Assembly: GCA_012523545.1 (NCBI GenBank)
Contig: JAAYIH010000019.1
Location: 1-39,657 of the forward strand
DNA length: 39,657 bases
Direction: 5' to 3'
DNA from: Bacillota bacterium
Lineage (GTDB): Bacteria > Bacillota > Proteinivoracia > UBA4975
Shown here: piece by piece, positions 16,543 through 18,753 of the stretch
Layout of the letters: each line of letters opens with the position of its first letter
Position numbering within the stretch: the first letter of the stretch is position 1
Translations under genes and position numbers: made by a program
The notes under the pieces: generated by a model
Told to the model about the DNA's origin: nothing
Seen by the model: the letters and a program-made list of their open reading frames with translations, nothing else
The model's database searches: none

Positions 16543-17628
16543 CTACTCTTCCTTCCCGTCGGCTCCGTGGCTGCGCAACATTTTCTTTAAGCCATCGGTG
16601 ATCCGCACTTCGCCGTCGGGCATCACCCAGAGGGCTTCCACCCCGTCCAGAGCATCGGCCAGTTGCCGGCTCTCGGCATAGGGTAACAGGAACAGTTCGG
16701 TGGAAAGCAAATCGGCTAACCCGGAATCGCGGGTAACCACCGTTACTGCCCGGAAATGGGGCGCCGGCATCAGGGTGTCGGGATCGATTAAGTGATGGTA
16801 GCGGACTCCGTCGACGTAATAATAACGCTGATAGTCACCGCTGGTCACCACCGAGGCATCGTTGACAAACACCATGTCCAGGTTTCTGTCTTCTGCAAAC
16901 AGCGATTTCGCCGGATCAATGATGCCAATACCCCACTGTTCCCGGACGCCGTCCCGGGGCTTGCCCACCGTGCGGATGTTGCCGCCGGCGCTGATGGCCC
17001 CCGACCGCATGCCGGCCGCGTACAGTTCCCTGGCCACCACTTCGGTGGCATAACCCTTGGCAACGGCCCCCACGTCCAGACGCATGCCCGGTTCGGCCAG
17101 AAAAACAGTGCTGTTTTCAACATCGATAATAACCTTGTCGATATCCGCTCGCCGGGCGGCCTCCTGCAAAAGCTCCATGGGCGGCAGGGCGGCGTTATCG
17201 GGGTCGTACACGCCGTCGGTGCGGTAGTCGTGCCAGATCTGCAAAACCGGCCCCAGGGCAATGTTGGTCTTGCGGCCTGCCCTGGCCCAGTCGACGCCCA
17301 GGGCAACCAGATCCAGCACTTCCTTATCCACTTTGACGGGAGCAATTCCCGCCATGTCGTTGATGGTCTTTATGTTGTTTAAGCCAGGGTAGGTATTGTA
17401 GATGTCATAATAGCGGTGCAACTCCCGGAAGCGGGTCCGGGCCAGTTCAAAATACTCCCGAAACTCCTCTTCCGTCTCGGTATACGCAAACAGCGTAATC
17501 ACGGTGTCAAATGCATCCAGGATGGAGTCGGAATACAGCTGGAACTTGAGTTTGGGCTGGGTATTGCTGCATGCTGCCGCAGTCAGACACAGCAGAGCCA
17601 GGAGCATTGCGGCAATCAGTTTGCGCAC
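16543..17628 (-). CDS. apbE: FAD:protein FMN transferase (ApbE), lipoprotein
   Basis: Attaches FMN from FAD to a threonine of extracytoplasmic flavoproteins. 361 aa. Signal peptide MRKLIAAMLLALLCLTAAAC with lipobox LTAAAC (Cys20), so it is membrane-anchored outside the cytoplasm. Family blocks: LDAFDTVITLFAY, the GAVAKGYATEVVA segment, GAISAGGNIRTVG, HHLIDPDTLMPAP and the Mg-binding ADLLSTELFLL. GTG start at 17628 with a modest AAGGAT site. It lies 93 nt downstream of, and in the same direction as, the FMN-binding-like lipoprotein, its probable substrate, with a hairpin terminator between them. Confidence 0.93.
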   Translation of the reverse strand: MRKLIAAMLLALLCLTAAACSNTQPKLKFQLYSDSILDAFDTVITLFAYTETEEEFREYFELARTRFRELHRYYDIYNTYPGLNNIKTINDMAGIAPVKVDKEVLDLVALGVDWARAGRKTNIALGPVLQIWHDYRTDGVYDPDNAALPPMELLQEAARRADIDKVIIDVENSTVFLAEPGMRLDVGAVAKGYATEVVARELYAAGMRSGAISAGGNIRTVGKPRDGVREQWGIGIIDPAKSLFAEDRNLDMVFVNDASVVTSGDYQRYYYVDGVRYHHLIDPDTLMPAPHFRAVTVVTRDSGLADLLSTELFLLPYAESRQLADALDGVEALWVMPDGEVRITDGLKKMLRSHGADGKEE

Positions 17629-17676
17629 TGACCATCATCCTTGCCTGATAAGATTAAAGATATCATAACAAAATAA

Positions 17677-17705
17677 TGGGGCCGCCTCAAGATGAGACTG
17701 CCCCA
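17677..17705 (-). terminator. Hairpin terminator between FMN-binding-like lipoprotein and apbE
   Basis: Minus strand TGGGGC...GCCCCA with an inner CTCA/TGAG stem, followed by TTATTTTG. It would limit read-through so that the lipoprotein can be made in excess over ApbE. Confidence 0.65.
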
Positions 17706-17721
17706 ATAAATTCCAGGCGCC

Positions 17722-18753
17722 TTACCTGGCGTTTTCGTGGGATTGCTTGAAGGCCGCCAGGTAGGACTCAACGGTGATGGTGACAGAAGACTCAAGCTCG
17801 GGTACATCGGGTACATGGGTGTGGTTTTCGTCCCGCTGCTTGACCTTCATGCCGGTCACTTCGTTGACGGTCTTGCCAATCATCCACTCTTCCAGGGCGG
17901 CGATTTGCTCAAACCACTCTTTGTCGATCTCGGAGACCCTCTTCATGTTGTAGTCGTATTTTCTTTCCTTCTTGGTCTGCACTTCGGCATTCCTGTCGGC
18001 AACTACTTTGCCCTCGGCGTCGTAGGGAATCCGAATCTGAGCGGTGTCGATGCTGACAGCGGCCACTTTGCCTTCGGCGTTAAAGACGGTGCCGACAAAG
18101 GTGGTGTCGATTTGCGCCTGGGCAGTGGCGGTATCGCTGGCATCCCGGGAGCTGGCGATGGAGATGTCGAAGCCAAGGCCCATCTTGTCGTAGCCCGTGA
18201 ATTCTACAGCATTCTTCCAGGCCTTTTCCACAGCAGCCAGGTAATCTTCAACGGTGATGGTGACGGAAGACTCAAGCTCGGGCACGTCGGGCACATGGGT
18301 GTGGTTTTCGTCCCGCTGCTTGACCTTCATGTTGAGCACTTCGTCAACGGTCTTGCCGACCATCCACTCTTCCAGGGCGGCGATTTGCTCAAACCACTCT
18401 TTGTCGATTTCGGAGACTCTCTTCATGTTGTAGTCGTACTTCTTCTCCTTCTTGGTGAGCAGTTCAGCATCGCGGTTGGTGACGGCCATGTTCTCGTCGA
18501 AGTTTACCTGCACTTGAGCAGTGTCGATGCTGACAGCGACGATCTTGCCGTCCTTGTCAAATACTACGGCGGCGACAGTGGTATCGCCCTGAGCTCTTGC
18601 GGTGGCGTTTTCAGATGCATCCCTGGAGCTGGCAATGGAGTTGACGGCGCCTACGCCAAACTTGTAAACGGGTTCGGCTTTGCGGCAGCCGGCCACTGCA
18701 AATACGGCCACAAGCATGCACAGTGATAATACAAGAGCTATTCCTTTTTTCAT
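17722..18753 (-). CDS. Lipoprotein with two tandem FMN-binding-like domains
   Basis: Probable extracytoplasmic flavoprotein substrate of ApbE. 343 aa from the ATG at 18753 (AGGAGG 8 nt upstream). Signal peptide with lipobox AVAGC, Cys23. The mature part consists of two copies with a 160-residue (480-bp) period, about 32-191 and 192-343. Each has SIASSRDAS, a VFdxxGKivAVSIDTAQ strand pair, YDYNMKRVSEIDKEWFEQIA and a C-terminal PDVPELESSVTITV block. SSVT (T165, T325) sits where FMN-binding domains carry the flavinylated SGAT threonine, followed by the same YLAA helix pattern. Long DNA stretches are almost identical, indicating recent duplication. The two-domain lipoprotein plan recalls Listeria PplA of extracellular electron transfer; flavinylation here is inferred. 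Confidence 0.75.
   Translation of the reverse strand: MKKGIALVLSLCMLVAVFAVAGCRKAEPVYKFGVGAVNSIASSRDASENATARAQGDTTVAAVVFDKDGKIVAVSIDTAQVQVNFDENMAVTNRDAELLTKKEKKYDYNMKRVSEIDKEWFEQIAALEEWMVGKTVDEVLNMKVKQRDENHTHVPDVPELESSVTITVEDYLAAVEKAWKNAVEFTGYDKMGLGFDISIASSRDASDTATAQAQIDTTFVGTVFNAEGKVAAVSIDTAQIRIPYDAEGKVVADRNAEVQTKKERKYDYNMKRVSEIDKEWFEQIAALEEWMIGKTVNEVTGMKVKQRDENHTHVPDVPELESSVTITVESYLAAFKQSHENAR
17881..18417. repeat. Near-identical 480-bp-spaced direct repeats inside the lipoprotein gene
   Basis: The segment around 17881-17937 recurs at 18361-18417 with only a few differences, as does the preceding GGTTTTCGTCCCGCTGCTTG block (17822 and 18302). The constant offset of 480 bp equals the 160-residue protein repeat. 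Such repeats allow recombination to expand or contract the gene. Confidence 0.85.

What the first reader, a model, noticed from the sequence alone, without database searches (positions are those of the whole stretch)
16543..18753. Recently duplicated FMN-binding-like lipoprotein next to ApbE
The lipoprotein has two 160-residue copies, each ending with SSVT where FMN-binding domains carry the flavinylated SGAT threonine, and the ApbE lipoprotein that performs such flavinylation lies directly downstream. Together they form a minimal extracytoplasmic flavin system, similar in plan to PplA/ApbE of Gram-positive extracellular electron transfer but without the NADH dehydrogenase and quinone genes nearby. 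The altered acceptor motif (SSVT for SGAT) is noteworthy.
Basis: partly seen in the sequence, partly recalled or inferred. Interest (0 to 1): 0.62.

Follow-up and report, generated by a model that had tools for sequence, protein, structure and literature searches.

The report
Twin-flavin lipoprotein with dedicated ApbE partner
This bacterium encodes a surface-anchored protein with two similar flavin-binding domains, next to the enzyme (ApbE) that probably attaches the flavins; the pair belongs to a recently described kind of extracellular electron carrier, but its flavin-attachment signature is unusual (SSVT instead of SGAT).

Summary
In detail: a lipoprotein (17722-18753, minus strand) with two ~150-residue repeats, each with an SSVT motif, followed directly by an ApbE lipoprotein gene (16543-17628). 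FMN-binding kinship is supported although Pfam FMN_bind does not hit the window protein. A profile of the repeats matches the solved structure 2KZX, whose SGAT falls on SSVT and which itself matches PF04205. Distant homologues carry canonical DVTSGAT/DVTTGAT at that place. Length, pairing and insertion positions match the published FMN-bind2 domain (Huang et al. 2024). Two corrections. The duplication is not recent: 47 homologues share both repeats, and only the C-terminal halves look homogenised. SSVT is not a local oddity: among 98 repeats the acceptor is Thr in 95 and Ser in 3, with Val before it in 95. New here: the lipoprotein-linked ApbEs form one clade (100/100) apart from the EetB-linked ApbEs sampled, and occur in 38 of 40 lipoprotein genomes (399 searched). 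A terminator-like hairpin separates the two genes in 28 of 34 pairs. EetB, a FmnB-like ApbE and an Rnf complex with a five-FMN RnfG lie elsewhere in the genome. Most likely a two-flavin surface electron carrier; flavinylation at SSVT is inferred, not shown.

The parts
17722..18753 (-). lipoprotein gene with two FMN-bind2-like domains (343 aa from ATG)
   Evidence: ORF; RBS AGGAGG; repeats; AlphaFold pLDDT 90.9, pTM 0.86
18208..18663 (-). first FMN-bind2-like repeat (residues 31-182 from ATG)
   Evidence: repeat HMM; single-domain AlphaFold pLDDT 95.1
17728..18186 (-). second FMN-bind2-like repeat (residues 190-342 from ATG)
   Evidence: repeat HMM
18259..18261 (-). codon of Thr165, predicted FMN acceptor of repeat 1 (ELESSVT)
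   Evidence: column is 95 Thr and 3 Ser of 98
17779..17781 (-). codon of Thr325, predicted FMN acceptor of repeat 2 (ELESSVT)
17662..17706 (-). terminator-like hairpin (GGGGCAGTCTCA...TGAGGCGGCCCC then T-rich) between lipoprotein and apbE
   Evidence: fold (z -2.1); such a hairpin is present in 28 of 34 homologous intergenic regions against 18 of 680 shuffles
16543..17628 (-). apbE, FAD:protein FMN transferase lipoprotein, lipoprotein-linked subtype
   Evidence: PF02424 E 2.2e-60; PDB ApbE matches with TSGDYQR, HHLIDP, ADLLST regions kept; clade

Best explanation
The lipoprotein is a membrane-anchored, extracytosolic electron carrier built of two FMN-bind2-type domains. The lipoprotein ApbE encoded downstream takes FAD outside the membrane and transfers FMN to the threonine of each [E/D]-L-x-S-x-V-T motif (Thr165, Thr325). 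The two domains, packed as a pair, would hold two covalent flavins and relay electrons from a membrane donor to an extracellular acceptor. In this genome the likeliest donor is the Rnf complex with its five-FMN RnfG, and the FAD probably comes through the EetB transporter encoded in the same cluster as the FmnB-like second ApbE. A terminator-like hairpin between the genes would let the substrate be made in excess of its modifying enzyme. Shown by computation: homology, the motif position, conservation of gene pair and acceptor residue, the ApbE clade. Inferred: flavinylation, donor, acceptor, FAD supply, expression ratio.
For: Profile of the repeats hits 2KZX at E 4.5e-4 along the domain with SGAT aligned to SSVT, and the matched part of 2KZX hits PF04205 above its cut-off. 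Single-domain homologue L023 hits PF04205 at E 0.007, below its cut-off. Distant homologues L118-L120 score E 1e-14 to 1e-18 against the repeat profile and carry DVTTGAT/DVTSGAT there; L120 lies in a NusG_II, ApbE, EetB, FmnA-like locus. Two homologues carry a canonical FMN_bind domain at the N terminus. Motif tally. apbE is immediately downstream in 38 of 53 decidable loci and behind a second lipoprotein-like gene in 3 more. ApbE subtype and lipoprotein co-occur: 38 genomes with both, 2 lipoprotein only, 6 ApbE only, of 399. The ApbE clade has 100/100 support. The published ~160-aa paired FMN-bind2 description fits (PMC11334425). Val for Ala in the motif kept about 50% flavinylation in a tested protein, and Thr was essential (PMC12052999).
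Against: The window protein itself does not reach PF04205. Foldseek found no significant solved structure; its best single-domain hits were IscU-like with TM below 0.5. The motif lacks both Gly and Ala of SGAT, and Ser, Thr or Leu at the Gly position has not been tested in any paper I read. No electron donor or acceptor gene is adjacent.
Confidence: 0.8

Rival explanations
1. The pair is the direct counterpart (orthologue) of Listeria PplA/FmnB, acting as the surface carrier of a flavin-based EET (FLEET) system whose other genes are scattered in this genome.
For: Same gene plan, a lipoprotein with two flavin sites and an ApbE; EetB, a NusG_II-like gene and a FmnB-like ApbE are present in the genome; a distant homologue sits in an ApbE-EetB-FmnA-like locus.
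Against: The window ApbE scores higher against Treponema ApbE (135 bits) than against Listeria FmnB (113 bits), whereas the C37 ApbE scores best against FmnB (186 bits). The two ApbE groups are separate clades. PplA sites are 122 residues apart (T143, T265, PMC8906456) against 160 here. The PplA sequence was not at hand.
Confidence: 0.12
2. The domains keep the FMN-bind fold but have lost covalent flavinylation; they bind flavin loosely or only act as a structural partner, and the nearby ApbE modifies another protein.
For: Gly and Ala of the SGAT motif are replaced almost throughout the family. In G147 and G356 the same ApbE subtype sits beside an FAD_binding_2 (fumarate-reductase-like) lipoprotein instead.
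Against: Thr or Ser is kept in all 98 repeats, an acidic residue six before it in all 98, and Ser or Thr three before it in 92. Linkage and co-occurrence with the ApbE subtype are very strong. Val for Ala is partly tolerated by a known ApbE.
Confidence: 0.06
3. The protein arose by a recent tandem duplication in this lineage.
For: The two copies are 71% identical, and one stretch is nearly identical in DNA.
Against: 47 homologues from many families have both repeats. N-terminal halves are nearest to the same-position repeat of another protein in 88 of 94 cases. Only C-terminal halves resemble their own partner (35 of 94), which looks like homogenisation within the gene.
Confidence: 0.02

Closest known systems
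FMN-bind2 domain proteins (Huang, Meheust, Barquera and Light 2024, mSystems, PMC11334425)
   Same: About 160-aa domains, found in pairs, with insertions between beta1 and beta2 and between beta3 and alpha1; found by BLAST rather than by Pfam in that work; an Erysipelotrichaceae two-domain protein was their example, and an Erysipelotrichaceae homologue (L020) belongs to this family.
PplA/FmnB of Listeria extracellular electron transfer
   Same: Surface lipoprotein with two ApbE-modified threonines and an ApbE encoded in the same cluster.
   Different: No Ndh2, EetA, EetB or quinone genes adjacent here; the ApbE is of another subtype; site spacing 160 instead of 122.
FMN_bind (PF04205; NqrC, RnfG, 3O6U, 2KZX)
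   Same: Distant homology by profile, with the acceptor threonine just before the last helix.
   Different: Longer domain, no hit over the Pfam cut-off, altered motif.
Multi-FMN proteins of Gram-positive bacteria (Meheust 2021, PMC8238504)
   Same: More than one predicted FMN site in an extracytosolic protein.
   Different: Those were found by PF04205; this family would be missed by that search.

Membership tests
FMN-bind2 domain | domain of about 160 aa | tested here: met
   repeat period 159-160 residues, domain about 153 aa
FMN-bind2 domain | even number of domains, packed as a pair | tested here: met
   two domains in the window protein and 46 other homologues; four homologues or fragments show one; full-length model pTM 0.86. 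The packing itself was not inspected because coordinates are not given.
FMN-bind2 domain | insertions between beta1/beta2 and beta3/alpha1 relative to FMN-bind1 | tested here: inconclusive
   strands 3-17, 26-38, 43-58 and first helix 74-81, compared by eye with PF04205 sequences, agree; no superposition was possible
FMN-bind2 domain | direct sequence similarity to the published Erysipelotrichaceae protein | not tested
   its sequence is not in the paper text; an Erysipelotrichaceae homologue exists (L020)
ApbE substrate (general) | D-x-x-[S/T]-G-A-[S/T] motif | tested here: not met
   [E/D]-L-x-S-x-V-T instead; acceptor Thr 95 and Ser 3 of 98, acidic residue at -6 in 98 of 98, Gly at -2 in 1 of 98, Ala at -1 in 2 of 98
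ApbE substrate (general) | covalent FMN on the threonine | not testable with these tools
   needs mass spectrometry or in-gel fluorescence
FMN_bind PF04205 | score over the curated cut-off of 22 bits | tested here: not met
   no hit for the window protein; 17.5 bits for homologue L023
FMN_bind PF04205 | homology by profile | tested here: met
   repeat profile to 2KZX E 4.5e-4, matched part of 2KZX to PF04205 E 1.8e-7; hhalign score 19.9 against at most 17.2 in 100 column shuffles
FMN_bind PF04205 | fold match to a solved FMN_bind structure | tested here: inconclusive
   no match with E <= 0.001; best rows IscU-like, TM below 0.5; only 50 rows shown
Listeria-type FLEET (PplA system) | locus with ndh2, eetA, eetB, fmnA, dmkA/B, pplA, fmnB | tested here: not met
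   none beside the window pair; EetB with a NusG_II-like gene and FmnB-like ApbE on contig C37; Ndh2 not resolved among Pyr_redox_2 proteins
ApbE (PF02424) | family score and catalytic regions | tested here: met
   204.9 bits; TSGDYQR, HHLIDP and ADLLST aligned with solved ApbEs

The most novel reading that the evidence does not exclude
A distinct ApbE lineage has co-evolved with a twin-domain lipoprotein family to recognise [E/D]-L-x-S-x-V-T instead of D-x-x-S-G-A-T, so that two ApbEs in one cell (this one and the FmnB-like one) flavinylate different substrates with separate motif specificity.
Probability: 0.35. Interest if true: 0.55.

Novelty: new variant of a known kind. Interest (0 to 1): 0.42.

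Why it matters
Surveys of protein flavinylation count substrates by PF04205 or the SGAT motif; this family, found in about one in ten sampled genomes of the phylum, escapes both. If SSVT is modified, the recognition rule of ApbE is broader than described, or is split between ApbE lineages, which would matter for flavin-tagging and for finding extracellular electron transfer in anaerobes. The gene pair is compact and easy to test in E. coli.

Tried and rejected
Recent duplication was rejected. Chance Pfam hits of the window protein (DUF7064, HicB-like, Allantoicase and others) were all below cut-off, inconsistent between homologues and dropped. The IscU-like Foldseek hits were not followed: TM below 0.5, rmsd 7-10. 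The many weak hits (E 1e-3 to 1e-11) of the phylum scan that cover only the first 50-100 model positions were set aside as probable signal-peptide matches. The full-length Foldseek search was uninformative, probably because of the two-domain query. PplA could not be compared by sequence: no tool held it, and a plasmid tblastn with a related query found only Acetoanaerobium noterae. The ApbE tree contrasts lipoprotein-linked ApbEs from many families with EetB-linked ApbEs from one class only, so 'dedicated lineage' is relative to that sample.

Full report
Observation. On the minus strand, 17722-18753 encodes a 343-residue lipoprotein (ATG at 18753 after AGGAGG; lipobox AVAGC) with two repeats that are 71% identical over 153 residues. 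Each repeat has ELESSVTITV, with the threonines at residues 165 and 325. 94 bp further, 16543-17628 encodes an ApbE lipoprotein (PF02424, E 2.2e-60).

Is it an FMN-binding domain? Pfam FMN_bind does not hit the window protein. Four routes connect it. First, a profile of 37 repeats finds 2KZX in the PDB at E 4.5e-4, aligned across most of the domain with ISGATIKV on tssvtitv, and the matched part of 2KZX hits PF04205 at 32 bits. Second, the single-domain homologue L023 hits PF04205 at E 0.007, below the cut-off. Third, distant homologues L118, L119 and L120 match the repeat profile at E 1e-14 to 1e-18 and have DVTTGAT or DVTSGAT near the C terminus. The automatic alignment of L120 places SGAT on SSVT; in L118 and L119 that segment scores weakly and rests on position. 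Fourth, hhalign of the repeats against local FMN_bind domains aligns the motif and last helix with score 19.9, while 100 column-shuffled controls reached at most 17.2. L012 and L018 carry an extra, canonical FMN_bind domain in the same chain.

Structure. AlphaFold is confident for the whole protein (pLDDT 90.9, pTM 0.86) and for one domain (pLDDT 95.1): three long strands, helices, and the motif just before the last helix. Foldseek against the PDB gave no hit with E at or below 0.001; the best rows for the single domain were IscU-like with poor TM. The fold assignment therefore rests on sequence and topology. The description of FMN-bind2 by Huang et al. 2024 (about 160 aa; two or four copies; insertions between beta1/beta2 and beta3/alpha1; pairing through the sheet face; example from an Erysipelotrichaceae bacterium; PMC11334425) fits in the points I could check, and an Erysipelotrichaceae homologue is in the family.

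The motif. Over 98 repeats: position -6 Glu 75 or Asp 23; -5 Leu 94; -3 Ser 90, Ala 6 or Thr 2; -2 Ser 55, Thr 16, Leu 16, Gly 1; -1 Val 95, Ala 2; acceptor Thr 95, Ser 3. So [E/D]-L-x-S-x-V-T is the family rule. According to the ApbE review, in a tested fumarate reductase Ala to Val and Gly to Ala left about 50% flavinylation, Asp to Ala had minor effects, and Thr to Ala abolished it (PMC12052999). SSVT is thus plausible but untested.

Age of the duplication. 47 homologues have both repeats. In the N-terminal half the nearest relative of a repeat is the same-position repeat of another protein in 88 of 94 cases; in the C-terminal half the own partner is nearest in 35 of 94. Within-protein identity rises from 0.52 (N half) to 0.74 (C half), beyond the between-protein values. 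The duplication is old, and the half with the motif looks homogenised, most simply by gene conversion (inference; parallel constraint is an alternative).

The partner. Of 57 distinct homologues (bridging ones included), apbE follows immediately on the same strand in 38, follows a second lipoprotein-like gene in 3, is absent nearby in 12, and 4 run into a contig end. Several unlinked cases have the same ApbE subtype elsewhere in the genome. In 399 genomes of the phylum, 40 have the lipoprotein (E below 1e-20) and 44 have the ApbE subtype (E below 1e-60); 38 have both. Fisher's p is 2.5e-44, not corrected for kinship. In a maximum-likelihood tree the lipoprotein-linked ApbEs are one side of a 100/100 branch and the EetB-linked ApbEs are on the other. 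By phmmer against the PDB the window ApbE is nearest to Treponema ApbE, the C37 ApbE to Listeria FmnB. In G147 and G356 the subtype sits next to an FAD_binding_2 lipoprotein instead, so it may have other substrates.

The hairpin. Between lipoprotein and apbE lies GGGGCAGTCTCA-TCT-TGAGGCGGCCCC followed by a T-rich stretch. A detector for hairpin plus T-rich tail fires in 28 of 34 homologous intergenic regions and in 18 of 680 dinucleotide shuffles. Partial termination would give more substrate than enzyme (inference). A putative terminator downstream of pplA was also drawn in Listeria (PMC4379056).

Rest of the genome. Contig C37 has rnfC, rnfD, a five-FMN_bind RnfG-like protein, further Rnf genes, an Mrp-type antiporter-like block (by inspection), the FmnB-like apbE, a NusG_II-like gene (by inspection) and eetB. 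Membrane-anchored Ndh2 was not resolved among the Pyr_redox_2 proteins. A donor role for Rnf/RnfG is inference from co-presence.

Conclusion. Most likely a two-flavin surface lipoprotein of the FMN-bind2 kind with its own ApbE: ordinary in kind, unusual in acceptor motif, and missed by Pfam-based surveys.

Noticed in passing
17662-17706: Terminator-like hairpin between lipoprotein and apbE, conserved as a feature (not in sequence) in most homologous gene pairs.
   Followed up: yes
L115 (G000:C37:64000-83500): Rnf cluster whose RnfG-like protein has five FMN_bind domains, followed by a Mrp-type antiporter-like block, a FmnB-like apbE, a NusG_II-like gene and eetB.
   Followed up: partly
L117:4234-4605 (G000:C31): Small 123-aa protein with about half of an FMN_bind domain and canonical DVISGAT, next to a flavodoxin-like gene.
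   Followed up: no
L131:4290-5771 and L134:4291-5763: The same ApbE subtype sits beside an FAD_binding_2 (fumarate-reductase-like) lipoprotein in genomes where the twin-domain lipoprotein was not found.
   Followed up: partly
L118:6299-7282, L119:6312-7298: Distant relatives combine a LysM cell-wall domain with one domain of this family and a canonical TGAT motif.
   Followed up: partly
L121:4024-5076: A neighbouring gene fuses a canonical FMN_bind domain (VSGAT) to a diverged domain of this family with VAKAT in the motif place.
   Followed up: no
17722-18753: The C-terminal halves of the two repeats look homogenised within each protein across the family, as by gene conversion.
   Followed up: yes
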